Assembly (NCBI GenBank): GCA_024220505.1 | Contig: JAKZZE010000012.1 | Coordinates: 248,001-312,000, forward strand | Source of the DNA: Rhizopus arrhizus | Taxonomy: Eukaryota > Mucoromycota > Mucoromycetes > Mucorales > Rhizopodaceae | Reading direction: 5' to 3' | Length of the DNA: 64,000 nt | Part shown: positions 1-64,000 of the stretch, piece by piece | How positions within the stretch are numbered: the first letter of the stretch is position 1 | Layout of the letters: the number at the start of each line of letters is the position of its first letter | The notes under the pieces: generated by a model | The model's input: only the letters and a program-made list of their open reading frames with translations | The model's database searches: none | Told to the model about the DNA's origin: nothing | Position numbers and translations under genes: made by a program

Positions 1-2
1 CC

Positions 3-3000
3 GACCAAGATACCCGTACTTGTACAAAAAACAACAATATGCTTACTATGACCCTGTGGAATGCCAATGGCTGTAATCGCTACACTGTTGATCAAACCAC
101 CAATTCGCTCCTTACATCGTCACTCATTTTCATTACTGAAACTTGGTTATTGTCTCCACTTCGGCTTATGACTTTATGGCAACAATACCATACCTATGGC
201 GTACCGCTTGAGGGTCAAAGTCGAGGACAGATGGGCATCAGTCTGCTTGTCAATCCTGATTGTCCCTATCCAGTTACTCACTTTCCCTCTGACAATTCTT
301 ATGTGCTCAGCTGTCAAGTCTCTACCTTGCTTGTCCACTGTGTCTATCTGCCGCCATCGCTCTCTGACCTCGAAGCAATGGATATACTCGATGGACTTCC
401 TCACCAAACACATCCATCACAGACCAACATGATTGTGTGCGGTGACTTTAACGCTCGACACCAACATCTTCTTGGTGATTCAAGAACTACGACTCGTGGC
501 ATCAAGTTGTTCAGCTGGATCCTGGAGAATGGAATGACATGTTGGAATACTCAACTAGCCTATGGTATCCCAACCTATTGTGCTCAAGGCCGTGTCAATG
601 CTACCACCGGTGAACACTTCAACAGTGTCATCGACTTGTTTCTCAGTTCACAACAACTGGTGAATCCAAAGATGCTTGTACATGAAGACCTCTCTCTTGG
701 TTCAGACCATCATCCTGTATCATTGTCCTGTGTCCTGCCTCCACCACCGCCACCACCTGCTCATCCTCGTCGTTTGTGGAATCTGAGTAGACTGACCGAG
801 CCTGACTGCCTCTATGTTGACCTCTTCCGGGACCGTATCCAACCGTTTCGTGAATGCTTGACAACATATGCATCATCTACCAATAACACAGCACCCGATA
901 TGGATCTCCTTGCCAACGAGTTGACCTCCATCATTCATTCTTGTCTGGATGACTCTGTCGGTCAAAAGAAGCCTCGTGGTTCTGGCAATGCCTGGTTCTG
1001 GACTGATGATCTTCAAGCTCTGTTTGACCGTCGTGAACAAGCCCGTCGCAAGTGGAAAAGAACTGTTGGTATCAACAAAGTACTTCGATGGCAAGAATAT
1101 GAAGTTGCTGCCCAGCGGTTCAAAAGTGCCCTGTACTGTCGTCGTCGTGCTACTTGGAAGCAATTCTGCGAAACTTTGTCTTCTGGTCCGCTGTCTGACA
1201 CCACTGCTACTATCAAGAGAATTAGACGCAATCGCACACTGGCTCCTTCTTATTCCCATCCGGAAGGTCCCACTGTTGCGGCTACAACCATGGCTAATCA
1301 CTTGAAGCAAGTATTCTCTGGCTCGTCCTTACCATCGACTAGGTACAATGCACCACCGATCCCCTCCGGTCCTCATTGTCTTGAAGATGATCCGTGTCCA
1401 GTGGATATAGAAACGGTGCGCACTGCACTTCTCAAACGTCTCTCACGTCGCAAGGCTCCAGGCTGTGATCACTTACGAACAGAGATGCTATTGCCAATTG
1501 CTGATGATCTGGTTCCTGTCCTGACCTTGCTCTTTCGTCTGTGCTGGATATGGTCTGCTGTCCCTGCTGCATGGTGCACTGCTCAAGTGGTCCCAATCTA
1601 CAAGAAGGGTGATCCACTGCAACCAGCAAACTATCGACCGATCAGCCTGACATCGATATTACGAAAGCTCTTTGAACTGTGCTTGCAGACAACTCTTGAA
1701 GACACCGCTCCACCACTCGACCCAGTCCAAGGCGGCTTCCGTCATAGTCGTAGTGCTCTGGATCAAGCGCTCTGTCTGAATGAGCTCTGTCGACAGCATG
1801 CTATTGATCATCATGGTGAACCTCCTGTCTTGGCCTTCTTGGATATCAAGTCTGCTTATGACACCGTTGATCGAGCAATCATATGGCGTGCTCTAGAGAC
1901 CTACATCTCTCCTGCTCTACTTGGTCTACTCCAATGTCTGTTTGACAAAGTAAGTATAGAAGTCTTGGTCTCTGGTTTTACCTCTCCTGCATTCTGGCCA
2001 AGAACTGGTGTGCTTCAAGGTTCAATCCTGTCACCGTTCTTGTATTCGATCTATATCAACAGCCTCCCAGCTCTGCTTCGTTCTATTCGATTACCAATCT
2101 CGGCAAGGTATTACAGCTCAAATCCACAACGTGAATTCGATGGCCTCTGGTTGAACTGTCTACTATATGCTGATGACGTTGTCCTTATAGGTGCTCCAGA
2201 AGTCATGCCTCGTCTTCTCAAGGCAGCTGAAGAACACTCCTTCTCCTTGGGTTACCGATGGAATCCTGCCAAGTGTGTGGTGGTCAACTCTGCTTTCTCT
2301 CTTGGTGGTCCCCAGCTCAAGTTGTATGGTGATGACATTCCCATTCAATCTACCTTCAACTATCTCGGCGTCCCATTTGATGATACTGGCACCATCGCTA
2401 CTGGTCTGCTGATTCAACGAAATGTTACCTCTGCTGTCTCTGCTATGCGTCGCTTCCTTTTGCCTGTCGGTATCCGCTCTCCTGGCTTCTCTCGCCTTAC
2501 TGCTACTCGTCTCTACACTATCTTTATTAGACCTAGATTCGAGTATGGTTTGTGCATCTGCACCTTTTTGCAAAAGCAACTGGCTCTACTGGATCGCGCC
2601 CAAGATCAGTGTCTTCGTTTGGCATTCGGTGGTCATCCTCGTGCCTCTACCACGGTGTTCAAGCACTTGACAAGTACTCCATCGATGCATGTGCGGGCCC
2701 ATACTTTGGTACTCAAGATGATTGTCCGTGTCCACCATCTTCCTGATGATTGTCTGCTTGCCAAGTTGGTTCCCTTTGTCGCTGCCGCACCGATCAAGAA
2801 CCGTTTCCGATGGCCGGCATTGCTGAGGCAAAACCCTCTATGGTTGAACCCTCAGTATACAGGTGGGTATACTTCTGTTGATGATCGCCTTGCACATCTT
2901 TCTACTGATGTCCATGTCAAGCAGGGTGTGCTCGCTTACCGCAATGACCTTCTGCATCGAATCTTGAATCGTCCTGATCCACCTGTCCTCCTCTCTGCTT

Positions 3001-3461
3001 GTCGTCCAAGTATCGGCATTGATGCGATGTTCTTCATCTCAATGCTCCTCTCTGACCGTAGTCGCATCCTTCGATGGCGTATGGGGTGGCTTCCTGCTCG
3101 TCCTATCGACTGTAGCTGTGGTCCCATCCATGCCTCTCGTACTCATCTCTTGTCCTGTCTCCGTGTTGCTGAAAGATTGAATCTACCTGTTGACATCAAG
3201 CCCAATCCTTTGGATTATGTTCTGAATATGTTGCCAAGGAAACTTCCAGCATATCCATCTCAAGCACTGTTCTCTCGTTGGTCCCTTTGGTGGCCTGTTG
3301 TCTGTCAAGTCCTCCTTGAAATCGAACAGATTTGCCTTCCCGAAGGCACATTTGTTGGATCGTCTATCGACACATCTGGCTCTCTTTTCTTGGACAAGAT
3401 TCGCCCACTGCCACTGTCAAGTACAGTCGATTATTTGTTCTTTGAATCAGTACAAGATTAA
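3..3461 (+). CDS. LINE-A ORF2 endonuclease/reverse transcriptase (A0, 5' partial)
   Basis: The reading frame is open from the window edge to TAA at 3459-3461. It lacks only about the first 16 codons of the 1166-aa ORF2 seen in the intact neighbours. All catalytic motifs described for the A2 copy are present: WNANG, ETW, GDFN and SDHHP of the endonuclease, YADD of the RT (codons at 2166-2177), and the C-terminal CSCG...HLLSC cluster. One codon (AAA, Lys) is inserted near residue 24 relative to the other copies. Protein variants such as PVDIKPNPLDY, and the 3' UTR, match A1, so A0 and A1 form a close pair. It is probably functional if the missing 5' end is intact. Confidence 0.93.
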   Translation, partial: DQDTRTCTKNNNMLTMTLWNANGCNRYTVDQTTNSLLTSSLIFITETWLLSPLRLMTLWQQYHTYGVPLEGQSRGQMGISLLVNPDCPYPVTHFPSDNSYVLSCQVSTLLVHCVYLPPSLSDLEAMDILDGLPHQTHPSQTNMIVCGDFNARHQHLLGDSRTTTRGIKLFSWILENGMTCWNTQLAYGIPTYCAQGRVNATTGEHFNSVIDLFLSSQQLVNPKMLVHEDLSLGSDHHPVSLSCVLPPPPPPPAHPRRLWNLSRLTEPDCLYVDLFRDRIQPFRECLTTYASSTNNTAPDMDLLANELTSIIHSCLDDSVGQKKPRGSGNAWFWTDDLQALFDRREQARRKWKRTVGINKVLRWQEYEVAAQRFKSALYCRRRATWKQFCETLSSGPLSDTTATIKRIRRNRTLAPSYSHPEGPTVAATTMANHLKQVFSGSSLPSTRYNAPPIPSGPHCLEDDPCPVDIETVRTALLKRLSRRKAPGCDHLRTEMLLPIADDLVPVLTLLFRLCWIWSAVPAAWCTAQVVPIYKKGDPLQPANYRPISLTSILRKLFELCLQTTLEDTAPPLDPVQGGFRHSRSALDQALCLNELCRQHAIDHHGEPPVLAFLDIKSAYDTVDRAIIWRALETYISPALLGLLQCLFDKVSIEVLVSGFTSPAFWPRTGVLQGSILSPFLYSIYINSLPALLRSIRLPISARYYSSNPQREFDGLWLNCLLYADDVVLIGAPEVMPRLLKAAEEHSFSLGYRWNPAKCVVVNSAFSLGGPQLKLYGDDIPIQSTFNYLGVPFDDTGTIATGLLIQRNVTSAVSAMRRFLLPVGIRSPGFSRLTATRLYTIFIRPRFEYGLCICTFLQKQLALLDRAQDQCLRLAFGGHPRASTTVFKHLTSTPSMHVRAHTLVLKMIVRVHHLPDDCLLAKLVPFVAAAPIKNRFRWPALLRQNPLWLNPQYTGGYTSVDDRLAHLSTDVHVKQGVLAYRNDLLHRILNRPDPPVLLSACRPSIGIDAMFFISMLLSDRSRILRWRMGWLPARPIDCSCGPIHASRTHLLSCLRVAERLNLPVDIKPNPLDYVLNMLPRKLPAYPSQALFSRWSLWWPVVCQVLLEIEQICLPEGTFVGSSIDTSGSLFLDKIRPLPLSSTVDYLFFESVQD

Positions 3462-3612
3462 CGATTGTTAATTGCCGTCAACATCTCTCTTTGTTTACTT
3501 TGCCTTTTCTTTTTTTTCTAGCTATGTCTAGTTTTTATTTTTATTTTTTATTTCTTAACTCTTATTACTCTCCTATCTTGTTTTATCTTTTCTAAAATTT
3601 ATTGCACCTCAT

Positions 3613-3643
3613 GGCGAGACACATACTGTAACGTCTCCTTGCC
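3613..3643 (+). promoter_or_regulatory. Conserved 3'-UTR hairpin of family A (example in A0)
   Basis: GGCGAGAC and GTCTC...GCC can pair (GAGAC/GTCTC, then GGC/GCC across a CTT bulge) around a 12-nt loop. The element lies a few bases before the AATAAA and is present in every A copy, while the neighbouring T-rich tract varies in length. It is a plausible structure for RT recognition of the RNA 3' end, but the function is inference. Family B lacks this sequence. Confidence 0.45.
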
Positions 3644-3667
3644 ATTCAATAAACAAAAATCTTTTAT

Positions 3668-3681
3668 CTGTGCTAAACGGG
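3668..3681 (+). repeat. Junction 14-mer A0/A1
   Basis: CTGTGCTAAACGGG ends A0. A1 begins immediately with CGCCTTTCTTTCGTG. This is the first of nine copies of the shared junction sequence in the window. Confidence 0.9.
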
Positions 3682-3909
3682 CGCCTTTCTTTCGTGTTCT
3701 TAACCGTTACACCAATTTGCACCTGGTTAAACGTTTATCCGCACAAATAACTTTTACATCCATCTGTTAAATCGCATCCATCCATCATTAGCAAGATAGA
3801 TACAACATCCAAAACAACTTTATTACAAACTACAACCCAAATAGAAGCGTATTCGTCAAGCTATATCCAAAATACGAATCGTTTGAATATTGACATTTCA
3901 AGATCTCTC

Positions 3910-5368
3910 ATGGAAAAAAAATTCTCAAGGTCAGAGCGGCAATGGCACGTCCGTGCCAGCACCACTTGTCCAGTCCGCACTGCATGTCCAACCCGGACAA
4001 GTTGTCCAACCCGGACCAATTGTTCAACCCGGACCAACTGTTCAGTCCGCACAACCTAAGGACACACCAGTTGTCCAACCCGGACCATTTGTTCAACCCG
4101 CACCAACTGTTCAGTCCGCACTCACTATGGGCACACCAATTGAAATTCCCAGCAAGCGCACAATTGCTGACAGAACTCCACCTTACGTTCCTACGAATGT
4201 TAAAAAGACCATCACCAAGCCTACTACCCGTAGTCAAATCCTCAAGACCAAGAACAAGAACTTGAATCCTAGCACCTCTTCTTTCAAGCTCAGTTTAGAC
4301 AAGCCTGTAGACTTTTCATTTAGTCAGAATGACTCCGCAATTAAACCATTATTTACCAGGGAAGTGAACCCTTTAGCTTTACCCGATACTCAAATACTTG
4401 ATCTTAGCTCCCAATCTGGTATTCCAGATTGGTTTATAGTATATCAAAAGCAGCAACAAGATCAAACCCGCTTTTTGAACCAACGTTTGAATGCTCTTGA
4501 AGAGGTCATGGCCGAAAACAAACGTTTGCGCACCGACTTGGACCTGGCACAACAGCGCATTGCAGAACTTGAAGCCCAGGTATCTACCGAAGCCATCCCC
4601 ACCTTGGTACTGGATTCCAAAGTTACTCAAGGTACCGAAGCATCCAAGTACGCATGTCCCAATACCTCGTTGACTTCATCGACTGAACCACTTTCTTTCG
4701 CTGCTGTGGCAACAAAAGGTAAGGATGCACCTGCACCAAAGAGCAAGGCACCATCACGCCGTCGCAAGACAACTGCTCGTCAAATGGAAGCCATACACCG
4801 CCGCTTTGTCCCTGTCGCTGCTCATCATGACTATGAGTACGTGTACTTGCCAAGTCGTTACCGTGAACCTATATCCAGTCTTCGTAGCAAGCTACATAAG
4901 CTTAAGATCAACAACGCTCGTGTACTGGATGTACATTACCCTGACCGTCAAGTGGTTGCTCTTTTGGTGCACACAGAATACACCGCTGATCTGCTCGCTG
5001 CCTTTGCTAAAGCCAAGGTCGAACCTATTCAAGGATTCAATCCTTTGAACCCTGACCTCTTGCGTGATCCCAAGTTTGCTGATTTGTCTGGATCTGACCG
5101 TACTGTCAAGTGTACCGAAGTTCATCAAGCTCGCCTTGTCCGTGCATTGCAGCACATCCGTGAGTCTGTTCGCCCTGCTGTTGCTCGTTCCTTCTTTGTA
5201 AAGAACTGGATCACCCTTGATCAGTACAAAGAAGTTGTGCCTACTGTTACCCGTGCTGCTAAAACCATTGGATCAACTCAAGACGCCACGATGGAAGAAA
5301 TCCACGATACCTTCAGCACTACAGAACTTGATCCTCTCGATGTTGGTGAATCGACCTCATCCCAATGA
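3910..5368 (+). pseudogene. LINE-A ORF1, start-proximal +1 frameshift (A1)
   Basis: The body of the protein is the same as the 485-aa ORF1 of A2, including the VQ-rich repeats, coiled coil and RRM-like region. The start codon at 3910 is followed by eight A residues where the intact copies have seven. Translation from this ATG therefore runs out of frame and stops at about 4265. The correct frame stays open upstream of the A-tract but has no ATG there. Either the copy cannot make ORF1 or slippage in the homopolymer restores it. A sequencing error in the A-run is also possible. The stop overlaps the ORF2 start (ATGA). Confidence 0.85.
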
Positions 5369-8300
5369 TGAGTGTCTTACCCATTGAAGCTTTAAATATG
5401 CCTATGCCCAACCAAGATACCCGTACTTGTACAAACAACAATATGCTTACTATGACCCTGTGGAATGCCAATGGCTGTAATCGCTACACTGTTGATCAAA
5501 CCACCAATTCGCTCCTTACATCGTCACTCATTTTCATTACTGAAACTTGGTTATTGTCTCCACTTCGGCTTATGACTTTATGGCAACAATACCATACCTA
5601 TGGCGTACCGCTTGAGGGTCAAAGTCGAGGACAGATGGGCATCAGTCTGCTTGTCAATCCTGATTGTCCCTATCCAGTTACTCACTTTCCCTCTGACAAT
5701 TCTTATGTGCTCAGCTGTCAAGTCTCTACCTTGCTTGTTCACTGTGTCTATCTGCCGCCATCGCTCTCTGACCTCGAAGCAATGGATATACTCGATGGGC
5801 TTCCTCACCAAACACATCCGTCACAGACCAACATGATTGTGTGCGGTGACTTTAACGCTCGACACCAACACCTTCTTGGTGATTCAAGAACTACGACTCG
5901 TGGCATCAAGTTGTTCAGCTGGATCCTGGAGAATGGAATGACATGTTGGAATACTCAACTAGCCTATGGTATCCCAACCTATTGTGCTCAAGGCCGTGTC
6001 AATGCTACCACCGGTGAACACTTCAACAGTGTCATCGACTTGTTTCTCAGTTCACAACAACTGGTGAATCCAAAGATGCTTGTACATGAAGACCTCTCTC
6101 TTGGTTCAGACCATCATCCTGTATCATTGTCCTGTGTCCTGCCTCCACCACCGCCACCACCTGCTCATCCTCGTCGTTTGTGGAATCTGAGTAGACTGAC
6201 CGAGCCTGACTGCCTCTATGTTGACCTCTTCCGGGACCGTATCCAACCGTTTCGTGAATGCTTGACAACATATGCATCATCTACCAATAACACAGCACCC
6301 GATATGGATCTCCTTGCCAACGAGTTGACCTCCATCATTCATTCTTGTCTGGATGACTCTGTCGGCCAAAAGAAGCCTCGTGGTTCTGGCAATGCCTGGT
6401 TCTGGACTGATGATCTTCAAGCTCTGTTTGACCGTCGTGAACAAGCCCGTCGCAAGTGGAAAAGAACTGTTGGTATCAACAAAGTACTTCGATGGCAAGA
6501 ATATGAAGTTGCTGCCCAGCGGTTCAAAAGTGCCCTGTACTGTCGTCGTCGTGCTACTTGGAAGCAATTCTGCGAAACTTTGTCTTCTGGTCCGCTGTCT
6601 GACACCACTGCTACTATCAAGAGAATTAGACGCAATCGCACACTGGCTCCTTCTTATTCCCATCCGGAAGGTCCCACTGTTGCGGCTACAACCATGGCTA
6701 ATCACTTGAAGCAAGTATTCTCTGGCTCGTCCTTACCATCGACTAGGTACAATGCACCACCGATCCCCTCCGGTCCTCATTGTCTTGAAGATGATCCGTG
6801 TCCAGTGGATATAGAAACGGTGCGCACTGCACTTCTCAAACGTCTCTCACGTCGCAAGGCTCCAGGCTGTGATCACTTACGAACAGAGATGCTATTGCCA
6901 ATTGCTGATGATCTGGTTCCTGTCCTGACCTTGCTCTTTCGTCTGTGCTGGATATGGTCTGCTGTCCCTGCTGCATGGTGCACTGCTCAAGTGGTCCCAA
7001 TCTACAAGAAGGGTGATCCACTGCAACCAGCAAACTATCGACCGATCAGCCTGACATCGGTATTGCGAAAGCTCTTTGAACTGTGCTTGCAGACAACTCT
7101 TGAAGACACCGCTCCACCACTCGACCCTGTCCAAGGCGGCTTCCGTCATAGTCGTAGTGCTCTGGATCAAGCGCTCTGTCTGAATGAGCTCTGTCGACAG
7201 CATGCTATTGATCATCACGGTGAATCTCCTGTCTTGGCCTTCTTGGATATCAAGTCTGCTTATGATACCGTTGATCGAGCAATCATATGGCGTGCTCTAG
7301 AGACCTACATCTCTCCTGCTCTACTTGGACTACTCCAATGTCTGTTTGACAAAGTAAGTATAGAAGTCTTGGTTTCTGGTTTTACCTCTCCTGCCTTCTG
7401 GCCAAGAACTGGTGTGCTTCAAGGTTCAATCCTGTCACCGTTCTTGTATTCCATCTACATCAACAGCCTCCCAGCTCTGCTTCGTTCTATTCGATTACCA
7501 ATCTCGGCAAGATATTACAGCTCAAATCCACAACGTGAATTCGATGGCCTCTGGTTGAACTGTCTACTATATGCTGATGACGTTGTCCTTATAGGTGCTC
7601 CAGAAGTCATGCCTCGTCTTCTCAAGGCAGCTGAAGAACACTCCTTCTCCTTGGGTTACCGATGGAATCCTGCCAAGTGTGTGGTGGTCAACTCTGCTTT
7701 CTCTCTTGGTGGTCCCCAGCTAAAGTTGTATGGTGATGACATTCCCATTCAATCTACCTTCAACTATCTCGGCGTCCCATTTGATGATACTGGCACCATC
7801 GCTACTGGTCTGCTGATCCAACGGAATGTTACCTCTGCTGTCTCTGCTATGCGTCGCTTCCTTTTGCCTGTCGGTATCCGCTCTCCTGGCTTCTCTCGCC
7901 TTACTGCTACTCGTCTCTACACTATCTTCATTAGACCTAGATTCGAGTATGGTTTGTGCATCTGCACCTTTTTGCAAAAGCAACTGGCTCTACTGGATCG
8001 CGCCCAAGATCAGTGTCTTCGTTTGGCATTCGGTGGTCATCCTCGTGCCTCTACCACGGTGTTCAAGCACTTGACAAGTACTCCATCGATGCATGTGCGG
8101 GCCCATACTTTGGTACTCAAGATGATTGTCCGTGTCCACCATCTTCCTGATGATTGTCTGCTTGCCAAGTTGGTTCCCTTTGTCGCTGCCGCACCGATCA
8201 AGAACCGTTTCCGATGGCCGGCATTGCTGAGGCAAAACCCTCTATGGTTGAACCCTCAGTATACAGGTGGGTATACTTCTGTTGATGATCGCCTTGCACA

Positions 8301-8865
8301 TCTTTCTACTGATGTCCATGTCAAGCAGGGTGTGCTCGCTTACCGCAATGACCTTCTGCATCGAATCTTGAATCGTCCTGATCCACCTGTCCTCCTCTCT
8401 GCTTGTCGTCCAAGTATCGGCATTGATGCGATGTTCTTCATCTCAATGCTCCTCTCTGACCGTAGTCGCATCCTTCGATGGCGTATGGGGTGGCTTCCTG
8501 CTCGTCCTATCGACTGTAGCTGTGGTCCCATCCATGCCTCTCGTACTCATCTCTTGTCCTGTCTCCGTGTTGCTGAAAGATTGAATCTACCTGTTGACAT
8601 CAAGCCCAATCCTTTGGATTATGTTCTGAATATGTTGCCAAGGAAACTTCCAGCATATCCATCTCAAGCACTGTTCTCTCGTTGGTCCCTTTGGTGGCCT
8701 GTTGTCTGTCAAGTCCTCCTTGAAATCGAACAGATTTGCCTTCCCGAAGGCACATTTGTTGGATCGTCTATCGACACATCTGGCTCTCTTTTCTTGGACA
8801 AGATTCGCCCACTGCCACTGTCAAGTACAGTCGATTATTTGTTCTTTGAATCAGTACAAGATTAA
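5365..8865 (+). CDS. LINE-A ORF2 endonuclease/reverse transcriptase (A1)
   Basis: This is an intact 1166-aa ORF2. Its ATG lies inside ATGA with the ORF1 stop, so it is expected to be translated by termination-reinitiation. Endonuclease and RT active-site motifs are complete, as in A2. It differs from A0 by only a few residues (for example Val for Ile in the LTS(V/I)LRKL segment). Because ORF1 of this copy is frameshifted, mobility would need ORF1 supplied from another copy. Confidence 0.95.
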   Translation: MMSVLPIEALNMPMPNQDTRTCTNNNMLTMTLWNANGCNRYTVDQTTNSLLTSSLIFITETWLLSPLRLMTLWQQYHTYGVPLEGQSRGQMGISLLVNPDCPYPVTHFPSDNSYVLSCQVSTLLVHCVYLPPSLSDLEAMDILDGLPHQTHPSQTNMIVCGDFNARHQHLLGDSRTTTRGIKLFSWILENGMTCWNTQLAYGIPTYCAQGRVNATTGEHFNSVIDLFLSSQQLVNPKMLVHEDLSLGSDHHPVSLSCVLPPPPPPPAHPRRLWNLSRLTEPDCLYVDLFRDRIQPFRECLTTYASSTNNTAPDMDLLANELTSIIHSCLDDSVGQKKPRGSGNAWFWTDDLQALFDRREQARRKWKRTVGINKVLRWQEYEVAAQRFKSALYCRRRATWKQFCETLSSGPLSDTTATIKRIRRNRTLAPSYSHPEGPTVAATTMANHLKQVFSGSSLPSTRYNAPPIPSGPHCLEDDPCPVDIETVRTALLKRLSRRKAPGCDHLRTEMLLPIADDLVPVLTLLFRLCWIWSAVPAAWCTAQVVPIYKKGDPLQPANYRPISLTSVLRKLFELCLQTTLEDTAPPLDPVQGGFRHSRSALDQALCLNELCRQHAIDHHGESPVLAFLDIKSAYDTVDRAIIWRALETYISPALLGLLQCLFDKVSIEVLVSGFTSPAFWPRTGVLQGSILSPFLYSIYINSLPALLRSIRLPISARYYSSNPQREFDGLWLNCLLYADDVVLIGAPEVMPRLLKAAEEHSFSLGYRWNPAKCVVVNSAFSLGGPQLKLYGDDIPIQSTFNYLGVPFDDTGTIATGLLIQRNVTSAVSAMRRFLLPVGIRSPGFSRLTATRLYTIFIRPRFEYGLCICTFLQKQLALLDRAQDQCLRLAFGGHPRASTTVFKHLTSTPSMHVRAHTLVLKMIVRVHHLPDDCLLAKLVPFVAAAPIKNRFRWPALLRQNPLWLNPQYTGGYTSVDDRLAHLSTDVHVKQGVLAYRNDLLHRILNRPDPPVLLSACRPSIGIDAMFFISMLLSDRSRILRWRMGWLPARPIDCSCGPIHASRTHLLSCLRVAERLNLPVDIKPNPLDYVLNMLPRKLPAYPSQALFSRWSLWWPVVCQVLLEIEQICLPEGTFVGSSIDTSGSLFLDKIRPLPLSSTVDYLFFESVQD

Positions 8866-9071
8866 CGATTGTTAATTGCCGTCAACATCTCTCTTTGTTT
8901 ACTTTGCCTTTTCTTTTTTTTCTAGCTATGTCTAGTTTTTATTTTTATTTTTTATTTCTTAACTCTTATTACTCTTTTATCTTGTTTTATCTTTTCTAAA
9001 ATTTATTGCACCTCATGGCGAGACACATACTGTAACGTCTCCTTGCCATTCAATAAACAAAAATCTTTTAT

Positions 9072-9085
9072 CTGTGCTAAACGGG
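9072..9085 (+). repeat. Junction 14-mer A1/A2
   Basis: CTGTGCTAAACGGG followed by CCTCATTTCTTTCGTG. The 5' end of A2 differs here from the usual CGCCTTTCTTTCG, a small junction variation. Confidence 0.9.
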
Positions 9086-9314
9086 CCTCATTTCTTTCGT
9101 GTTCTTAACCGTTACACCAATTTGCACCTGGTTAAACGTTTATCCGCACAAATAACTTTTACATCCGTCTGTTAAATCGCATCCATCCATCATTAGCAAG
9201 ATAGATACAACATCCAAAACAACTTTATTACAAACTACAACCCAAATAGAAGCGTATTCGTCAAGCTATATCCAAAATACGAATCGTTTGAATATTGACA
9301 TTTCAAGATCTCTC

Positions 9315-42430: not shown

Positions 42431-42479
42431 ATACAGTTATATTTTACGGGTTATTACAGCTAAATGCCTAAAAATGGGG

Positions 42480-53451: not shown

Positions 53452-53465
53452 CTGTGCTAAACGGG
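53452..53465 (+). repeat. Junction 14-mer A5/A6
   Basis: CTGTGCTAAACGGG followed by CGGCCTTTCTTTCGTG, one G more than the usual A 5' end. Confidence 0.9.
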
Positions 53466-53694
53466 CGGCCTTTCTTTCGTGTTCTTAACCGTTGCACCAA
53501 CATCCACCTGGTTAAACGTTTATCCGCACAAATATCTTTTACATCCGTCTGTTAAATCGCATCCATCCATCATTAGCAAGATAGATACAACATCCAAAAC
53601 AACTTTATTACAAACTACAACTCAAACAGAAGCGTATTCGTCAAGCTATATCCAAAATACGAATCGTTTGAATATTGACATTTCGAGATCTCTC

Positions 53695-55152: not shown

Positions 55153-58100
55153 TGAGTGTCTCACCTATTGAAGATTTAAATATGCCTATGCCCAACCAAG
55201 ATACCCGTACTTGTACAAACAACAATATGCTTACTATGACCCTGTGGAATGCCAATGGCTGTAATCGCTACACTGTTGATCAAACCACCAATTCGCTCCT
55301 TACATCGTCACTCATTTTTATCACTGAAACCTGGTTGTTATCTCCACTCAGGCTTATGACTTTATGGCAACAATACCATACCTATGGCGTACCGCTTGAG
55401 GGTCAAAGTCGAGGACAGATGGGCATCAGTCTGCTTGTCAATCCTGATTGTCCCTACCCTGTTACTCACTTTCCCTCTGACAATTCTTATGTGCTCAGCT
55501 GTCAAGTCTCTACCTTGCTTGTTCACTGTGTCTATCTGCCGCCATCGCTCTCTGACCTCGAAGCAATGGATATACTCGATGGGCTTCCTCACCAAACACA
55601 TCCGTCACAGACCAACATGATTGTGTGCGGTGACTTTAACGCTCGACACCAACACCTTTTTGGTGATTCAAGAACTACCACTCGTGGCATCAAGTTGTTC
55701 AGCTGGATCCTGGAGAATGGAATGACATGTTGGAATACTCAACTAGCCTATGGTATCCCAACCTATTGTGCTCAAGGCCGTGTCAATGCTACTACCGGTG
55801 AACACTTCAACAGTGTCATCGACTTGTTTCTCAGTTCACAACAACTGGTGAACCCAAAGATGCTTGTACATGAAGACCTCTCTCTTGGTTCAGACCATCA
55901 TCCTGTGTCATTGTCCTGTGTCCTGCCTCCACCACCGCCACCACCTGCTCATCCTCGTCGTTTATGGAATCTGAGTAGACTGACCGAGCCTGACTGCCTC
56001 TATGTTGACCTCTTCCGGGACCGTATCCAACCGTTTCGTGAATGCTTGACAACATATGCATCATCTACCAATAGCACAGCACCCGACATGGATCTCCTTG
56101 CCAACGAGTTGACTTCGATCATTCACTCTTGTCTGGATGACTCCGTCGGCCAAAAGAAGCCTCGTGGTTCTGGCAATGCCTGGTTCTGGACTGATGATCT
56201 TCAAGCTCTGTTTGACCGTCGTGAACAAGCCCGTCGCAAGTGGAAACGAACAGTTGGTATCAATAAAGTACTTCGATGGCAAGAATATGAAGTTGCTGCC
56301 CATAGGTTCAAAAGTGCCTTGTACTGTCGTCGTCGTGCTACTTGGAAGCAATTCTGCGAAACTCTATCTTCTGGTCCGCTGTCTGACACCACTGCTACTA
56401 TCAAGAGAATTAGACGCAACCGCACACTGGCTCCTTCTTATTCCCATCCGGAGGGTCCCACTGTTGCGGCTATAACCATGGCTAATCACTTGAAGCAAGT
56501 ATTCTCTGGCTCGTCCTTACCATCGACTAGGTACAATGCACCACCGATCCCCTCTGGTCCTCATTGTCTTGAAGATGATCCGTGTCCAGTGGATACAGAA
56601 ACGGTGCGCACTGCGCTTCTCAAACGTCTCTCTCGTCGCAAGGCTCCAGGCTGTGATCACTTACGAACAGAGATGCTATTGCCAATTGCTGATGATCTGG
56701 TTCCTGTCCTGACCTTGCTCTTTCGTCTGTGCTGGATATGGTCTGCTGTCCCTGCTGCATGGTGCACTGCTCAAGTGGTCCCGATTTACAAGAAGGGTGA
56801 TCCACTGCAACCAGCAAACTATCGACCGATCAGCCTGACATCGGTATTGCGAAAGCTCTTTGAACTGTGCTTGCAGACAACTCTTGAAGACACCGCTCCA
56901 TCACTCGACCCTGTCCAAGGCGGCTTCCGTCATAGTCGTAGTGCTCTGGATCAAGCGCTCTGTCTGAATGAGCTCTGTCGGCAGCATGCTATTGATCATC
57001 ATGGTGAACCGCCTGTCTTGGCCTTCTTGGATATCAAGTCTGCTTATGACACCGTTGATCGAGCAATCATATGGCGTGCTCTAGAGACCTACATCTCTCC
57101 TGCTTTACTTGGTCTACTCCAATGTCTGTTTGACAAAGTAAGTATAGAAGTCTTGGTCTCTGGTTTCACCTCTCCTGCTTTCTGGCCAAGAACTGGTGTG
57201 CTTCAAGGTTCAATCCTTTCGCCATTCTTGTATTCCATCTACATCAACAGCCTCCCAGCTCTGCTTCGTTCTGTTAGACTACCAATCTCGGCAAGGTACT
57301 ACAGCTCCAACCCACAACGTGAATTCGATGGCCTCTGGTTGAACTGTCTCTTGTACGCTGATGACGTTGTCCTTATAGGAGCACCTGAAGTCATGCCTCG
57401 TCTTCTTAAGGCAGCTGAAGAACATTCTTTCTCCTTGGGTTACCGATGGAATCCTGCCAAGTGCGTGGTGCTCAACTCTGCTTTCTCTCTTGGTGGTCCC
57501 CAACTCAAGTTGTATGGTGATGACATTCCCATCCAATCTACCTTCAACTATCTCGGCGTCCCATTTGATGATACTGGCACCATCGCTACTGGTCTGCTGA
57601 TCCAACGGAATGTTACCTCTGCTGTCTCTGCTATGCGTCGCTTCCTTTTGCCTGTCGGTATCCGCTCTCCTGGCTTCTCTCGCCTTACTGCTACTCGTCT
57701 CTACACTATCTTTATTAGACCTAGATTCGAGTATGGTTTGTGCATCTGCACCTTTTTACAAAAGCAACTGGCTTTACTGGATCGTGCTCAAGATCAGTGT
57801 CTTCGTCTGGCATTCGGTGGTCATCCTCGTGCCTCTACCACGGTGTTCAAGCACCTGACAAGCACACCTTCAATGCATGTACGGGCCCATACTTTGGTAC
57901 TCAAGATGATCATTCGTGTCCACCATCTTCCTGATGATTGTCTGCTTGCCAAGTTGGTTCCCTTTGTCGTTGCCGCACCGATCAAGAACCGTTTCCGATG
58001 GCCGGCATTGCTGAAGCAGAACCCTCTATGGTCGAACCCTCAGTATACGGGTGGGTATACTTCTGTTGATGATCGCCTCGCGCATCTCTCTACTGATGCC

Positions 58101-58652
58101 CATGTCAAGCAGAGTGTGCTCGCTTACCGCACTGACCTTCTTCACCGCATCCTGGATCGTCCTGATCCACCTGTCCTTCTCTCTGCTTGCCGTCCAAGTA
58201 TTGGCATTGATGGCATGTTCTTTATTCCAATGCTCCTCTCTGACCGTAGTCGCATCCTTCGTTGGCGTATGGGGTGGCTCCCTGCTCGTCCTATCGACTG
58301 TAGCTGTGGTCCGATTCATGCCTCTCGTGCTCATCTCTTGTCCTGTCTCCGTGTTGCTGAAAGATTGAATCTACCTGTTGACATCAAGCCCAATCCTTTG
58401 GATTATGTTCTGAATATGTTGCCAAGGAAACTTCCAGCATATCCATCTCAAGCACTGTTCTCTCGTTGGTCCCTTTAGTGGCCTGTTGTCTGTCAAGTCC
58501 TCCTTGAAATCGAACAGATTTGCCTTCCCGAAGGCACATTTGTTGGATCGTCTATCGACACATCTGGCTCTCTTTTCTTGGACAAGATTCGCCCACTGCC
58601 ACTGTCAAGTACAGTCGATTATTTGTTCTTTGAATCAGTACAAGATTAACGA
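55149..58652 (+). pseudogene. LINE-A ORF2 with late nonsense codon (A6)
   Basis: The frame runs as in A4 for 1109 residues and then hits TAG at 58476-58478, where all other copies have TGG (Trp in RWSLWW). The last 57 residues to 58652 are otherwise conserved. The endonuclease, RT motifs and C-terminal Cys/His cluster all lie upstream of the stop. The protein may therefore retain activity, though loss of the conserved tail suggests a defective copy. Confidence 0.9.
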
Positions 58653-58854
58653 TTGTTAATTGCCGTCAACATCTCTCTTTGTTTACTTTGCCTTTTCTTT
58701 TTTTTCTAGCTATGTCTAGTTTTTATTTTTATTTTTATTTCTTAACTCTTATTACTCTTTTATCTTGTTTTATCTTTTCTAAAATTTATTGCACCTCATG
58801 GCGAGACACATACTGTAACGTCTCCTTGCCATTCAATAAACAAAAATCTTTTAT

Positions 58855-58868
58855 CTGTGCTAAACGGG
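58855..58868 (+). repeat. Junction 14-mer A6/B2
   Basis: CTGTGCTAAACGGG followed by CTCTTTCGCTTTTGG. B2 starts about five bases further in than B1 (CACTTTTCTTTCGC). Confidence 0.9.
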
Positions 58869-59064
58869 CTCTTTCGCTTTTGGTTAAAAAGGTAAACTTG
58901 TTTATTTTTCAAAAAAAGCCGATAACTCCGCCAAATCAAGTCATCCATCTCCAGTTTTTACACCATTCGATTCATCTTTCAAAAACACACCTTTTGGTTA
59001 CTTTAATTTTTCGAATACATCAACTTTACATCGCTTTTTATCAGTTTGAAGTTAATCACAAAAG

Positions 59065-60036
59065 ATGGGACCTTTAAGAAAAACCTTGGGTTCAAGGATC
59101 CCCAACGCCGCCGCCTCAACAAACTCAGCAAATTCCAATGCTGACGTCACTCTTCAGTCTTTGGCTGCAGCCTACGAAGACCTCACTGCCCGCTTGAGTG
59201 CCTTAGAGCAGCTCCAGCTCGAAAACGCTCGCCTTTTGGAACTGACCAACAGTCAGGCCAATGAGATTGCTTCCTTGCGTGCCCAACTGGCCGCACGATC
59301 TGCCGGAACTCCTAGGGACACCCCAAGTTCAAATGCCGCTGCTTCTTCTCCTGCTGCCCCAAATGGTGCTAAAGAGACCGTTTCTTCGCCTTCCTTGGGT
59401 ACTGCTGCTTCCTCTTGGGCTACTGTGGCTTCACGTGGTTCCAAGAACAAACTCCGTCGTCGTGCCGCTGCTGCAAGAGGCTTCCAGCCTGTCACAGGTG
59501 AACAAGGGTTTGACTATGTCTACATACCTAGATCTCGCAAAATGACATACACTGAAGCTCGTCGTCGACTTGGTCGCTTGGGTGTTGACACCTGGCGGGT
59601 GTTGGATGTTTCATTTCCCGCACACTCCGTTGTTGGTCTGCTTGTCCATCTTCAGTACAAGCCTGCTCTCATCTCTTTGCTGGAGAAAGCAAAGATCAAG
59701 GTCCTTGATCAGTTCGATCCCTTAGATCCGGACAACGTTGCTGACCCTGCTTTTGCCTCTGCGCCTCTTGAGGTACGTCAAGAAAAGATGGCGCACATTT
59801 CTAATGAGCGTTGTCTTCGTACCCTTGAGCGCTTGCGCTATCCTGTTGCTGTTGCTGTCTCTCGTTTCTTTTTGGCCAATGCCATGGTGTCTGATGAGGC
59901 TGTCTCTGAAGTCTTGGCTGCCAAGCAAGACCGTCCTGCCTTCCCGCGCCATCGTGACCAACCTGACGATGAAATGCTTCTGGATCAGTATGATCAAGAC
60001 CGTCCTGCCTCTCGCTCCAGCTTTGGATCATTATAA
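59065..60036 (+). CDS. LINE-B ORF1 (B2)
   Basis: 323 aa. It is identical to B1 ORF1 except near the N-terminus (KTLGSRIPNAAASTN against KNLGSRIPSAAATSN). The nucleotide differences cluster in the first about 90 bp and in the 5' UTR. Coiled coil and RRM-like layout as in B1. The stop TAA and the ORF2 start ATG share one base in TAATG. Confidence 0.9.
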   Translation: MGPLRKTLGSRIPNAAASTNSANSNADVTLQSLAAAYEDLTARLSALEQLQLENARLLELTNSQANEIASLRAQLAARSAGTPRDTPSSNAAASSPAAPNGAKETVSSPSLGTAASSWATVASRGSKNKLRRRAAAARGFQPVTGEQGFDYVYIPRSRKMTYTEARRRLGRLGVDTWRVLDVSFPAHSVVGLLVHLQYKPALISLLEKAKIKVLDQFDPLDPDNVADPAFASAPLEVRQEKMAHISNERCLRTLERLRYPVAVAVSRFFLANAMVSDEAVSEVLAAKQDRPAFPRHRDQPDDEMLLDQYDQDRPASRSSFGSL

Positions 60037-63000
60037 TGATGAGTAGTAATACTTGTCATTATAATGTATCCTCGGTCTCTACATCTGGTATGGTCCCAGA
60101 TTCGTCAACCCCTTCCTCTCCTTTGGTTTCTCTTGGTTCTCATGGCTTCCATGGTTCATCCTCTCGTTCTTCATTATCATCATCACTCGTTCCGCTCACC
60201 ATCGGCTTGTGGAATGCCAACGGTCTCCAGGCTTCCACAGTCGATGACCTCCTCCGTCACTGCCAGTCGTTCTCGTTGGTCTTCATTACCGAAACCTGGT
60301 TGCTTCCTCCTGCTCGCCTTCCGACCTCATGGCAGCAGTTCCATCTGTATGGCTCTCCCGTTGCAGGTCAGTATCGTGGTTCTATGGGTGTCTCTGCCTT
60401 GGTCTCTCCTCGGTGTCCTCTTCCTGTGGTCGAATTCTCGGTAAACTGTAAGTATGCTCTTGGTTTGCAGTTGGGTCGTTCTCTACGGCTCATCTGTCTC
60501 TACCTGCCTCCTTCTCTGTCTACTGCTGAGGTACAGTCTGTTCTGGATTCTCTGCCACTCACTGACGATACGATCATTTGTGGTGATCTGAATGTTCGTC
60601 TTGGTCGTCTCGTCGGTGACTCTCGTACTAACATGCGTAGCTCTGTCCTTCGTCGTTGGTGCGACGATCATGGTCTCAACATCCTGAACAAGACTCTTGC
60701 CTATGGTATACCAACATACCTGACTTGTCGTGGTCATGCTGAGGTAAGCAGCATTGTAGACTACTACATCACCAACATGCCACTGGTTCGTTCAGCAAGT
60801 ATCTCGGTCGCCTTGGATCTTTCTTTGGGGTCAGATCACAAACTGATGTCTCTCTCTTTTGAGTACTCGGTCCCTGTGGTTCATTCCATGCAGTCTTCTC
60901 CTTCTTCAAGTCAAGTTCGTCGCCTTTGGAACCTTTCTCGGTTGAAAGAACCAGAAGTCCAGAAGCTGTATGTGTCCACCTTTGGTTTCTTGTCTGCTGC
61001 TTCGCTTGACCAGCTTCAACAGCTGTGTTCAAGTCCACCGTCAACACGTCCACCCATTGACCATCTTAACGATGAACTCAATGCGGCCATCTACTCTGCT
61101 CTGGACAAGTCTGTTGGATCTCGTGTCTCTCGACCCAAGCAATGGAAGAAGTTCTGGACATCTCAACTGCAAGCATTGGCTGATCGTCGCGACTGGCTCT
61201 ACCGTAAGTGGCGTTGGTCTCTTGGGATTGACAAAGCTTACTGGTGGGGTCTTCATCAAGAAGCTCATGTCCGTTTCCGCACGGCTGTCAAGCGAGCTAA
61301 ACGAGAATCTTGGCGTGCCTTTTGTGACTCCCTCGCTCGTGGCGACTTTTCTTCTGCGGTGCGTAGGGTCAAGCAAGTCCATAACCGTCGTCGTCCTCAA
61401 GTCTCATATGCTCATCCTGATGGTCCTGTCGCTGGTGCCAATGCTATGCGAGATCATCTTGCATCCGTCTACTCTGGCTCTGGTCTGCCATCCACTCGTC
61501 CTCCTCCTCTTCCATCTCCTGATGATCATGTCCCATTTGATCTTGGATCCTTGTCTGAGGATGACCCATCTGGTTCTGGTCTTGGTCTTGGTCTTGGTGC
61601 TGGTCTTGGTTCTGGTTCTGGTTCTGGTGCTGGTCTTTCTTCTTTTTCGGCTGACTCTGTTGCTGACACAATGCGTCGACTCCCTTTACGCAAAGCTCCT
61701 GGCTCTGATCATCTGCGTACAGAGATGCTTATTCCCATTCGCAAACAAGTAGCTGCTCTCCTGGCTCGTCTCTTTGATATCTGCTGCCAATGGTCTTACA
61801 CTCCTTCTCTTTGGCGTCATGCGCAGGTCGTGCCTATCTACAAGAAGGGCGACCCTCATCAACCGTCAAACTTCAGGCCGATCTCCTTGACGTCCATCAT
61901 CCGAAAGCTGTTTGAAATGTGTCTCTTTCCACATTTAGAAGATGTCTCGCCTCCATTGGACATTGCTCAAGGTGGTTTCCGTCCACAGCGAAGTGCTCTT
62001 GACCAAGCCCTCTGCTTGCATGACTTGATACAGGAGTACTATCGTCGAAAGCGTCATTTCCCTGTCGTGGCTTTTCTTGATATCAAGGCTGCCTATGATA
62101 CCGTCGACAGACGTGTCATATGGCAATCACTCTTGGCTGTCTCCGCTCCTTTTGCTCTGGTCTCTGTCTTGGCTCACCTCTTTGATGATGTTTCAATTTC
62201 GGTCCTGATGTCTAATCAAGTCTCGACGCCATTCACTCCGAGTACAGGTGTACTTCAAGGCTCTGTCTTGAGTCCGCATCTGTACTCGATCTACATCAAC
62301 ACGCTGCCTGCTCTTCTTCGTTCTGCTGCCACGCGTACTACAACAATGGTCTCGTCCTTGTCTCCTTCTGGTCCTCCTGGTTCTGGCTTTGGTCTTTCTC
62401 CTGGTCTTCCTTTTGGTCCGACATTGGATGTCTCCTCTTTGTCTTTGTCACCCACAGCCATCAATTCTCTCCTTTATGCTGATGATGTGGCTATTCTCGG
62501 TTCTGCAAGCGAAGTCAAACAGATGCTTGACCTGGCCCAAATCCATTCACAGGTACTTGGCTACAGATGGAGTCCTACCAAGTGTGCTATTCTCAATGCA
62601 CCAAATCCGACGTCGTCAAGGTACGTCCGTCTCACACTCTATGATGAAGACATACCGTCTGTCGATGAGTTCGTTTACCTTGGCGTGCCATTCGTGCGTA
62701 ATGGTATCTCTCCGTCTCGTCTGGTAGCCCACCGCAAGCCTGGTGCTCAGCTCAAGATGGCTCAACTGTCTGCTATTGGTGCCAATCGATCTGGTTTCTC
62801 GCTGCTGTTCTCTTCTCGCCTCTATGCTATGTTTGTACGTCCCAAGTTAGAGTATGGCCTAGCCATCTCGAAGCTGCTCAAAAAGGACTATGACGAGCTA
62901 GAGCGCGCTCAAAGTCGGTGTCTGCGTCTGATCGTTGGTGGCCACAAGACCTCGTCGACGGTTGTGCTTCGGCACATCTGTAATCTACCGTCGATGCGTT

Positions 63001-63653
63001 TCCGTGCTGATACCTTGGTGCTCAAGTTTTGTCTCCGTGTCCAGTCCTTGCCTGATGACTGTCTCCTGTCGCTGCTTTCTTCTTCGCTGCCATCGTCACT
63101 ACTATCAACTCTTCGCTCTCGACGCATTGTGCTCGATCACCCACCAGAAGTTACGGCTCCTTCTCGGCTTAAAACCTGGTTACATGCGTATCGTCAGCAA
63201 GAGTTTGATCAGTTCCTGGCTTCGACTTCTCAAGTCTTGATCAAGGCATGTCGTCCTGTGCTGCGTGTGGATCCAATCCTCTATGTTCCTGCTTCTCGCG
63301 CTGATCGTAGTCGACTTATACGTTGGCGTATGGGTTGGCTGCCTGGTGATCCTCGTCCTTGTGCTTGTCTGTTTGGTCATACCACTCGTGCCCATCTCAT
63401 GGTCTGTCCTCAGGTCCCATCGGCTCTCTGGTGTTGTCTTCCTTTCCCTCCTGCTGGTTCTACCGAGCTGCACATTGACTATCTCTTGTCTTTGTTGCCT
63501 GTTTCTCCTTCTGCTCGTTGTCCTCCGTTCTGGGTCAGTCTTTGTACCATCCTTTGGCACTTTGACCAGCTTTGCAACCCTGATGGTGATTACACCAATG
63601 ATCCTTCACCTGGATTACTTTGGTATGAAAGGTCGACTTCTCGTTCTCGGTGA
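60036..63653 (+). CDS. LINE-B ORF2 endonuclease/reverse transcriptase (B2)
   Basis: An intact 1205-aa protein. A Ser-rich leader (1-50) precedes the endonuclease (LWNANG about 58-63, FITETWLL, CGDLNVR, GSDHKLM). A linker has a Gly/Ser/Leu low-complexity stretch (SGLGLGLGAGLGSGSG, before the RT). In the RT come motif A FLDIKAAYD, motif B TGVLQGSVLSP, then a Pro/Gly/Ser-rich insertion (about 40 residues) before motif C YADD (814-817). The C-terminus carries C-x-C-x8-H-x3-C (about 1109-1124). It is about 40 residues longer than A ORF2, mostly from the leader and the two low-complexity inserts. Confidence 0.96.
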   Translation: MMSSNTCHYNVSSVSTSGMVPDSSTPSSPLVSLGSHGFHGSSSRSSLSSSLVPLTIGLWNANGLQASTVDDLLRHCQSFSLVFITETWLLPPARLPTSWQQFHLYGSPVAGQYRGSMGVSALVSPRCPLPVVEFSVNCKYALGLQLGRSLRLICLYLPPSLSTAEVQSVLDSLPLTDDTIICGDLNVRLGRLVGDSRTNMRSSVLRRWCDDHGLNILNKTLAYGIPTYLTCRGHAEVSSIVDYYITNMPLVRSASISVALDLSLGSDHKLMSLSFEYSVPVVHSMQSSPSSSQVRRLWNLSRLKEPEVQKLYVSTFGFLSAASLDQLQQLCSSPPSTRPPIDHLNDELNAAIYSALDKSVGSRVSRPKQWKKFWTSQLQALADRRDWLYRKWRWSLGIDKAYWWGLHQEAHVRFRTAVKRAKRESWRAFCDSLARGDFSSAVRRVKQVHNRRRPQVSYAHPDGPVAGANAMRDHLASVYSGSGLPSTRPPPLPSPDDHVPFDLGSLSEDDPSGSGLGLGLGAGLGSGSGSGAGLSSFSADSVADTMRRLPLRKAPGSDHLRTEMLIPIRKQVAALLARLFDICCQWSYTPSLWRHAQVVPIYKKGDPHQPSNFRPISLTSIIRKLFEMCLFPHLEDVSPPLDIAQGGFRPQRSALDQALCLHDLIQEYYRRKRHFPVVAFLDIKAAYDTVDRRVIWQSLLAVSAPFALVSVLAHLFDDVSISVLMSNQVSTPFTPSTGVLQGSVLSPHLYSIYINTLPALLRSAATRTTTMVSSLSPSGPPGSGFGLSPGLPFGPTLDVSSLSLSPTAINSLLYADDVAILGSASEVKQMLDLAQIHSQVLGYRWSPTKCAILNAPNPTSSRYVRLTLYDEDIPSVDEFVYLGVPFVRNGISPSRLVAHRKPGAQLKMAQLSAIGANRSGFSLLFSSRLYAMFVRPKLEYGLAISKLLKKDYDELERAQSRCLRLIVGGHKTSSTVVLRHICNLPSMRFRADTLVLKFCLRVQSLPDDCLLSLLSSSLPSSLLSTLRSRRIVLDHPPEVTAPSRLKTWLHAYRQQEFDQFLASTSQVLIKACRPVLRVDPILYVPASRADRSRLIRWRMGWLPGDPRPCACLFGHTTRAHLMVCPQVPSALWCCLPFPPAGSTELHIDYLLSLLPVSPSARCPPFWVSLCTILWHFDQLCNPDGDYTNDPSPGLLWYERSTSRSR

Positions 63654-63922
63654 AATGTGTTTTGATTGTTCCTCTGGCTTCTACCTCCCACTGCCACAAC
63701 CACTTAGTGCACGATGCGGAGGAGACCATGAACATGACATCCTACAAATTAGCTCTTTTGGTTTCTCTTTTGGCTTCTCTTCTCTCTCCTCTTTTTTGGT
63801 CCATCAAATGGTCGCTAGGACTTTTTTTCGTATCATGTATATTCTCTTTTTGTACTTTGATTAGCAAATAATGGCCTAAAGGTCGATTGCATTAATCTTT
63901 AAATAAAAACATAAATTTTCGA

Positions 63923-63936
63923 CTGTGCTAAACGGG
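63923..63936 (+). repeat. Junction 14-mer B2/A7
   Basis: CTGTGCTAAACGGG followed by CGCCTTTCTTTCGTG, the start of another A copy. Confidence 0.9.
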
Positions 63937-64000
63937 CGCCTTTCTTTCGTGTTCTTAACCGTTACACCAATTTGCACCTGGTTAAACGTTTATCCGCACA
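63937..64000 (+). mobile_element. LINE-A copy A7 (first 64 bp of 5' UTR)
   Basis: Identical to the A3 and A5 5' UTR start, cut by the window edge. It shows that the array continues to the right. Confidence 0.88.

What the first reader, a model, noticed from the sequence alone, without database searches (positions are those of the whole stretch)
1..64000. Head-to-tail, single-orientation array of ten LINE copies from two families
The whole window is A0-A1-A2-A3-A4-B1-A5-A6-B2-A7 on one strand, with zero to a few bases between a 3' end and the next 5' end. Such arrays are known for telomeric or centromeric LINEs (HeT-A/TART, SART/TRAS, Zepp) but are unusual for fungal LINEs. Several copies are intact, so the array may be actively extended.
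Basis: partly seen in the sequence, partly recalled or inferred. Interest (0 to 1): 0.9.

Follow-up and report, generated by a model that had tools for sequence, protein, structure and literature searches.

The report
tRNA-anchored LINE arrays in a fungus
This stretch of a fungal chromosome is a queue of jumping elements that insert one after another at the exact start of a transfer-RNA gene while leaving that gene whole, and related elements in the same genome do this at other transfer-RNA genes.

Summary
The array is real: A0-A1-A2-A3-A4-B1-A5-A6-B2-A7, one orientation. B1 and A5 are split by 16.1 kb and 1.6 kb of other elements, so not all of the window is LINE. The "few bases" at each joint are a 15-mer, the reverse complement of the first 15 nt of tRNA-Thr(UGU), plus 1-6 variable bases. 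The intact 18-nt tRNA start occurs four times in the genome; at all four an antisense A/B LINE array begins at tRNA nucleotide +1. This array's tRNA lies 1.7 kb left of the window. Of 21 listed relatives, 10 sit the same way at other tRNAs. One near-identical family carries a different tRNA's first 14 nt at each site, so the joint is a target-site duplication. Best reading: target-primed retrotransposition into a tRNA gene that every insertion restores, so the array grows from the tRNA; on C4 the least-diverged copies are nearest it. Telomeric identity is not supported; a centromeric role was not testable. Against strict specificity: 8 of 15 close B copies lie at other, unidentified sites. Similar behaviour is known (TRE tandems, Dewa, tRNA-specific NeSL/LIN elements); a fungal APE-type radiation cutting at tRNA +1, with long layered arrays, appears new.

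The parts
1..3682 (+). A0, 3' two thirds; its 5' end abuts tRNA-Thr(UGU) nt +1 at C4:246310, outside the window (window position -1690); ends in the 15-mer 3668-3682
3683..9086 (+). A1, ORF2 5365-8865; 15-mer 9072-9086
9087..14480 (+). A2, ORF1 9315-10772, ORF2 10769-14269; 15-mer 14466-14480
14481..19885 (+). A3, ORF1 14708-16165, ORF2 16162-19662; 15-mer 19871-19885
19886..25226 (+). A4, ORF1 20113-21519, ORF2 21516-25016; 15-mer 25212-25226
25227..26412 (+). B1, 5' part with ORF1 25425-26396
26413..42539 (.). 16.1-kb non-LINE insert in B1, bounded by inverted repeats; Transposase_21 ORF 30855-32195 on the minus strand
35801..42430 (+). Ty3/gypsy element inside that insert, two identical 501-bp LTRs (35801-36301, 41930-42430), gag 36493-37362, protease/RT/RNase H 37427-40204, integrase 40462-41883
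42540..46429 (+). B1, 3' part; 15-mer 46415-46429
46430..50055 (+). A5, 5' part with ORF1 46657-48114
50056..51683 (.). 1.6-kb element with terminal inverted repeats, inserted in A5 ORF2
51684..53466 (+). A5, 3' part; 15-mer 53452-53466
53467..58869 (+). A6, ORF1 53695-55152, ORF2 with one TAG; 15-mer 58855-58869
58870..63937 (+). B2, ORF1 59065-60036, ORF2 60036-63653; 15-mer 63923-63937
63938..64000 (+). A7, first bases; continues to C4:317263

Best explanation
A and B are site-specific LINEs (ORF1; ORF2 with an EEP/APE-type endonuclease and RT) that insert at the 5' end of the tRNA-Thr(UGU) gene. Proposed mechanism: ORF2 nicks the tRNA-sense strand at or just 3' of A14 in the A box, primes reverse transcription of the LINE RNA there, and the other strand is cut about 14-15 bp away at tRNA nucleotide +1. 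The tRNA gene stays whole, the LINE sits antisense with its 5' end against tRNA +1, and its 3' end is followed by a copy of tRNA nt 1-14/15. Because the full target is restored, the same gene can be hit again, and each new copy lands between the tRNA and the previous copy. This gives a head-to-tail, one-way array with the oldest members farthest from the tRNA. Shown by sequence: the target, the duplication, orientation, intact tRNA genes, 5' truncations, variable 5' joints, and copies that do not group by array. Inferred: the biochemistry, the exact nick, and growth at the tRNA end only.
For: 15-mer at 9 of 9 joints in the window. Its 13-nt core occurs 29 times in the genome, in four clusters only, one strand per cluster, reversed control 0. 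A complete tRNA-Thr(tgt) gene stands at the 5' edge of each cluster. The intact 18-nt tRNA start occurs 4 times, all four at arrays. One family, 98.6-100% alike in its 5' region, sits at Lys (two genes), Phe, Thr(CGT) and Met, each copy flanked on both sides by the first 14 nt of its own tRNA. 15 of 63 tRNA genes picked by tRNA score have a LINE 5' end within 10 bp of +1. Of 29 Thr joints, 22 start with a LINE 5' end, 3 with a 5'-truncated copy, 4 with a LINE stub followed by an LTR. Tree of 17 A copies: labels by array need 7 changes, shuffled mean 7.3. Terminal branches on C4 lengthen away from the tRNA, rho 0.85, exact one-sided p 0.0033. LTRs that stand 8-12 bp upstream of tRNA genes also stand 10-11 bp from 4 of 25 array joints that keep only the 15-nt fragment.
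Against: 8 of 15 close B copies are outside the Thr clusters and do not carry the Thr 15-mer. For 9 of 21 listed A relatives no tRNA was found in the DNA fetched around them. C40 terminal branches are uneven (0.011, 0.0015.016). The Asn-type family duplicates a shorter tRNA piece plus flank. The Ser(CGA) copies on C12 are 99.9% alike, which recombination could also give. For Thr, Ser and Ile the nick can be placed only to within a base or two. No reads, biochemistry or second species.
Confidence: 0.87

Rival explanations
1. One or a few tRNA-targeted insertions, then tandem amplification by unequal crossing-over between copies.
For: Neighbouring units align in register over long stretches, and the C12 Ser(CGA) units are 99.9% identical.
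Against: A copies do not group by array, and the nearest relative of A0, A1 and A2 is in another array; A and B alternate; 5' joints vary by 1-6 bases and three copies are 5'-truncated exactly at the tRNA fragment.
Confidence: 0.06
2. Telomeric or centromeric LINE array, with LINE clustering serving a chromosome function as for HeT-A/TART, Zepp or Mucor Grem-LINE1.
For: Grem-LINE1s are L1-like elements of pericentric regions in Mucor (PMC7377519, passages), and named protein relatives here are mucoralean. The C39 array ends about 30 kb from its contig end.
Against: All four Thr arrays begin at a tRNA gene; the C4 and C40 arrays are far from contig ends; 10 of 21 listed relatives stand directly at tRNA genes on various contigs.
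Confidence: 0.04
3. Rival for one step: the site is chosen by host Pol III factors bound to the tRNA gene (as proposed for TRE5 and Ty3), not by the endonuclease reading the A-box sequence.
For: One family uses several tRNAs. In this genome LTRs at 8-12 bp (26 of 63) and another element at 50-59 bp (22 of 63) upstream of tRNAs look factor-guided.
Against: Insertion is nucleotide-exact; A is confined to one isoacceptor by its exact 3' ends (18 of 18); three 3' ends without a recognised tRNA still start TGAGG, close to the TGAGC of the usual sites.
Confidence: 0.3
4. Assembly artefact: unrelated LINE copies joined by the assembler.
For: Repeats are hard to assemble; reads were not available.
Against: Most compared A copies differ by 2-3%, nested inserts are unique to copies, and four arrays plus other tRNA arrays share one architecture.
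Confidence: 0.02

Closest known systems
TRE5/TRE3 non-LTR retrotransposons of Dictyostelium (PMC5391098, PMC5911963; passages seen)
   Same: APE-type LINEs at tRNA genes; several elements at one tRNA form tandems without entering each other
   Different: TRE5 lands about 40-54 bp upstream and TRE3 40-150 bp downstream of tRNA genes; here insertion is flush with +1 and duplicates tRNA nt 1-14/15
Dewa, a LINE of the tRNA-Leu spacer in fish (named in a passage of PMC3706591, citing Kojima and Fujiwara 2004)
   Same: Sequence-specific LINE tied to a tRNA locus
   Different: Spacer target, fish, one tRNA; no sequence was available to compare
NeSL-1_TV (tRNA-Pro), LIN15_SM (tRNA-Arg), LIN25_SM (tRNA-Glu) (PMC4640811, passages)
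   Same: LINEs specific to one tRNA gene
   Different: Restriction-like endonuclease lineage; here EEP/APE type
Dada DNA transposons (PMC3706591, passages)
   Same: Related families each aimed at its own tRNA gene
   Different: DDE DNA transposons inserted inside the tRNA gene
Grem-LINE1 of Mucor (PMC7377519, passages)
   Same: L1-like elements of Mucoromycotina
   Different: Described as pericentric; no tRNA mention in that paper (0 occurrences); sequence not compared
HeT-A/TART, SART/TRAS, Zepp (recalled)
   Same: Head-to-tail LINE arrays built by reinsertion at a renewed target
   Different: Telomeric or telomere-repeat targets; here a tRNA gene

Membership tests
APE-type LINE (non-LTR retrotransposon) | ORF2 with EEP/APE endonuclease and RVT_1 reverse transcriptase | tested here: met
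   Pfam Exo_endo_phos(_2) and RVT_1 in A and B ORF2; RT region matches human LINE-1 ORF2p structures, E 4e-13
APE-type LINE (non-LTR retrotransposon) | Marks of target-primed reverse transcription: target duplication, 5' truncation, variable 5' joint | tested here: met
TRE5/TRE3 (Dictyostelium) | Insertion at a distance of tens of bp from the tRNA gene | tested here: not met
   LINE 5' ends start 1-10 bases from tRNA nt 1 in 15 of 15 cases found among 63 tRNA genes
NeSL/R2-type LINE | Restriction-like endonuclease | tested here: not met
   Only EEP and RVT_1 families found in A and B ORF2
Tx1 clade (Dewa, Keno, Mutsu) | Placement in the Tx1 clade by RT phylogeny | not tested
Telomeric LINE (HeT-A/TART, SART/TRAS, Zepp) | Array at chromosome ends or in telomere repeats | tested here: not met
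   All four arrays start at tRNA-Thr; the C4 and C40 arrays are internal, the C39 array is about 30 kb from a contig end. Telomere repeats were not searched for
Centromeric LINE / Grem-LINE1 | Pericentric location next to kinetochore-bound DNA | not testable with these tools
   No chromatin data and no Grem-LINE1 sequence held

The most novel reading that the evidence does not exclude
A radiation of fungal LINEs has evolved endonucleases that read the tRNA A box and cut 3' of the universally conserved A14, so that every insertion leaves the tRNA gene whole and reloadable. Families have specialised on different tRNAs. Their shared 5' ends (TTTCTTTC at the start of families as distant as A and B) replace the tRNA leader and keep the tRNA transcribed, even where every gene of an isoacceptor, as for tRNA-Thr(UGU), is occupied. 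The arrays are time-ordered records of insertion.
Probability: 0.42. Interest if true: 0.85.

Novelty: new variant of a known kind. Interest (0 to 1): 0.77.

Why it matters
tRNA genes are a known safe harbour for transposons, but here the element takes the gene's first 14-15 nt as target, restores the gene and can use it again. That would give nucleotide-exact, self-renewing landing pads; several related endonucleases with different small targets to compare, useful for learning how APE endonucleases choose sites and for targeted insertion tools; and arrays that order insertions in time. It also makes testable how a cell keeps its tRNA-Thr(UGU) genes working when transposons replace the upstream region of every one found.

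Tried and rejected
Telomere/centromere model: set aside once the tRNA anchor was found; telomere repeats were not searched for. Unequal crossing-over as the main cause: rejected for the Thr arrays on tree and joints, kept possible for the C12 Ser array. The 15-mer as part of the element: rejected, because one family carries four different tRNA sequences there (and, for Lys on C2). A known ribozyme or RNA family at the LINE 5' end: only a ToxI match far below its gathering score in one A 5' region. A conserved 5' hairpin is weakly supported (10 pairs, 5 with changes on both sides, consensus energy only -2.4 kcal/mol). Intron-containing tRNAs near relatives without a tRNA: none with standard ARAGORN options in the nine sequences given; relaxed options gave noise. 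An independent species: no relative in viral contigs; no other eukaryote genome was available. ORF1: no Pfam family, only weak coiled-coil hits; structure prediction could not be run. Prediction that the 70-72% B-like clusters sit at Gly(TCC): true for C1, apparently for C34, not for C4:183-198k, C8, C29, C32, C38 or C40.

Literature: eight answered searches listed no title or abstract on LINEs at tRNA +1 in fungi. I saw passages of seven papers and one whole section of one of them (PMC2699053 section 7, which reports Ty3 elements, not LINEs, co-localising with tRNA genes). Most subscription papers are not in that library.
Full report
What is there. The window is G000:C4:248001-312000 of a 50.26-Mb, 41-contig genome. 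Named protein relatives are mucoralean: ORF1 has matches of 82-96% identity in Rhizopus arrhizus/delemar records, and the best ORF2 matches are 65-77% to Rhizopus. The species is not known. A has ORF1 of 485 aa and ORF2 of 1166 aa, B has 323 and 1205 aa, and both ORF2s carry EEP endonuclease and RT domains. B1 is split by 16.1 kb holding a Transposase_21 ORF and a Ty3/gypsy element with identical 501-bp LTRs, and A5 by a 1.6-kb element with inverted repeats.

The joints. Each of the nine LINE 3' ends in the window is followed by CTGTGCTAAACGGGC. Its 13-nt core occurs 29 times in the genome, in four clusters only (C4, C28, C39, C40), on one strand per cluster; the reversed control gives 0. The first joint of each cluster is the 5' end of a complete tRNA-Thr(TGT) gene on the opposite strand. 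The intact 18-nt tRNA start is found four times, at these four places, so all four such genes detected carry an array. The tRNA of this array lies at C4:246239-246310, outside the window; no tRNA was called inside the window.

The joint is a target-site duplication. One search lists 21 relatives with 62-66% ORF2 identity. Of these, 10 have a tRNA gene directly at their 5' end, antisense: Ser(AGA) twice, Ser(CGA), Asn, Gln, Lys twice, Phe, Thr(CGT), Met. Two are inner copies of the C12 Ser array, and for 9 no tRNA was found in the DNA fetched, though the 3' joint of one of these (C4:680 kb) matches the start of tRNA-Thr(AGT). Most telling is one family, 98.6-100% alike in its 5' region, at five loci with four different tRNAs: each copy is flanked on both sides by the first 14 nt of its own tRNA. 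Of 12 printed 3' ends of this family, 11 are followed by a tRNA 5' 14-mer and one by TGAGG (Thr(AGT)). In a mixed list of 78 candidate 3' ends (the printed part of 192 matches, near-duplicates dropped; the control pattern gave 40), 25 match one of 17 known tRNA starts over 11 nt or more, against 0 of 1560 shuffles. Eight more match tRNA-Ile(AAT) or Thr(AGT), identified afterwards. The duplications fit a nick at or one base beyond A14 for Thr, Ser, Gln, Lys, Phe, Met and Ile; A14 and A-box numbering are recalled tRNA knowledge. The Asn-type family is an exception: its duplication covers only the first few tRNA bases plus flank.

How common. Of 63 tRNA genes listed by tRNA score (63 scored of 2878 candidates), 15 have a LINE 5' end within 10 bp of +1. 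The search pattern for this looked in one orientation only. The tRNA-Ile(AAT) start occurs 95 times, mostly in one-strand runs with spacings near 4.85 kb; one such run was checked to end in tRNA-Ile. The tRNA-Gly(TCC) start occurs 19 times: 5 in a row on C1, 7 and 5 on C34, and two singles. All 18 exact A 3' ends are in the four Thr clusters. Of 15 listed B copies of 93% identity or more, 7 are in the Thr clusters and 8 on C19, C22, C23 and C26; the B 3' end plus Thr 15-mer was found only in the Thr clusters, 7 times. So B is not confined to this tRNA, and its other targets are unknown.

How the array forms. Of 29 Thr joints, 22 start with a LINE 5' end (1-6 variable bases; two of these are interrupted soon after), 3 with a 5'-truncated copy, and 4 with a 10-11-base LINE stub followed by an LTR: marks of target-primed reverse transcription. 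A tree of 17 of at least 19 A copies does not group by array (7 changes, shuffled mean 7.3), so copies come from RNA of any array. On C4 terminal branches lengthen outward from the tRNA (0, 0.003.0013.0064.0006.0048.014.019; rho 0.85, exact one-sided p 0.0033). C40 is uneven (0.011, 0.0015.016). Among 63 tRNA genes, 26 have an LTR start 8-12 bp upstream (one more at 28), and 22 have CACTGCA at 50-59 bp; the LTR starts searched for were chosen from the same data. LTR starts also occur 10-11 bp from 4 of 25 array joints that hold only the 15-nt fragment, and CACTGCA at 57-58 bp from 2 of 25. The simplest reading is that those joints once stood beside the whole tRNA gene and were pushed outward by later insertions.

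Relations. In the ORF2 tree A groups with the Ser, Asn, Gln and Lys/Phe/Met/Thr(CGT) families (support 99/99), while B is on a deep branch with Mucor and R. stolonifer relatives (two outgroup rows have very long branches). Two distant lineages therefore meet on the same tRNA gene.

Known or new. Tandems at tRNA genes are known for Dictyostelium TRE elements (PMC5391098, passage), and tRNA-specific LINEs are known among NeSL/LIN types and Dewa (PMC4640811, PMC3706591, passages). Insertion flush with tRNA +1 that duplicates nt 1-14/15, a set of APE-type families with different tRNA choices, and long layered arrays in a fungus were not found in eight literature searches.

Limits. One genome, no reads, no expression data, capped lists and a cap on genome letters, no structure prediction and no second species. 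Cleavage at A14, growth only at the tRNA end, and any role of the LINE 5' end in tRNA transcription are inferences.

Noticed in passing
5' flanks of tRNA genes, L072-L134; array joints L020, L021, L033, L036: Ty3-like LTR starts stand 8-12 bp upstream of 26 of 63 tRNA genes, and at the same distance from four array joints that keep only 15 nt of tRNA.
   Followed up: partly
5' flanks of tRNA genes, L072-L134; L028, L031: A different element, or set of elements, with CACTGCA at its near end stands 50-59 bp upstream of 22 of 63 tRNA genes and of two array joints; identity unknown.
   Followed up: partly
C3, C9, C12, C14, C18, C24, C31: The tRNA-Ile(AAT) start occurs 95 times in the genome, mostly in one-strand runs with spacings near 4.85 kb: larger LINE arrays than the one given.
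   Followed up: partly
C19:789 kb, C22:660-677 kb, C23:466-491 kb, C26:530-549 kb: Eight close B copies (93-98% ORF2 identity) outside the Thr clusters; their target is unknown.
   Followed up: partly
window 3683-3760 and 5' ends of the other families: The LINE 5' ends share TTTCTTTC across families as distant as A and B, followed in the A-like families by a possible hairpin, weakly supported.
   Followed up: partly
window 35718-35800: A tRNA-like sequence (A- and B-box-like, not called by ARAGORN or Rfam) lies just upstream of the Ty3/gypsy element's left LTR.
   Followed up: partly
C4:322591-327489 (L137): A 1632-aa open frame on the minus strand inside the A8 copy; by eye a Ty3-like gag-pol with a chromodomain-like C-terminus (no family search).
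   Followed up: no
many contigs: A separate repeat ends AATAATCTTTAATCGTA with unrelated sequence after each copy: apparently a dispersed element not tied to tRNA genes.
   Followed up: no
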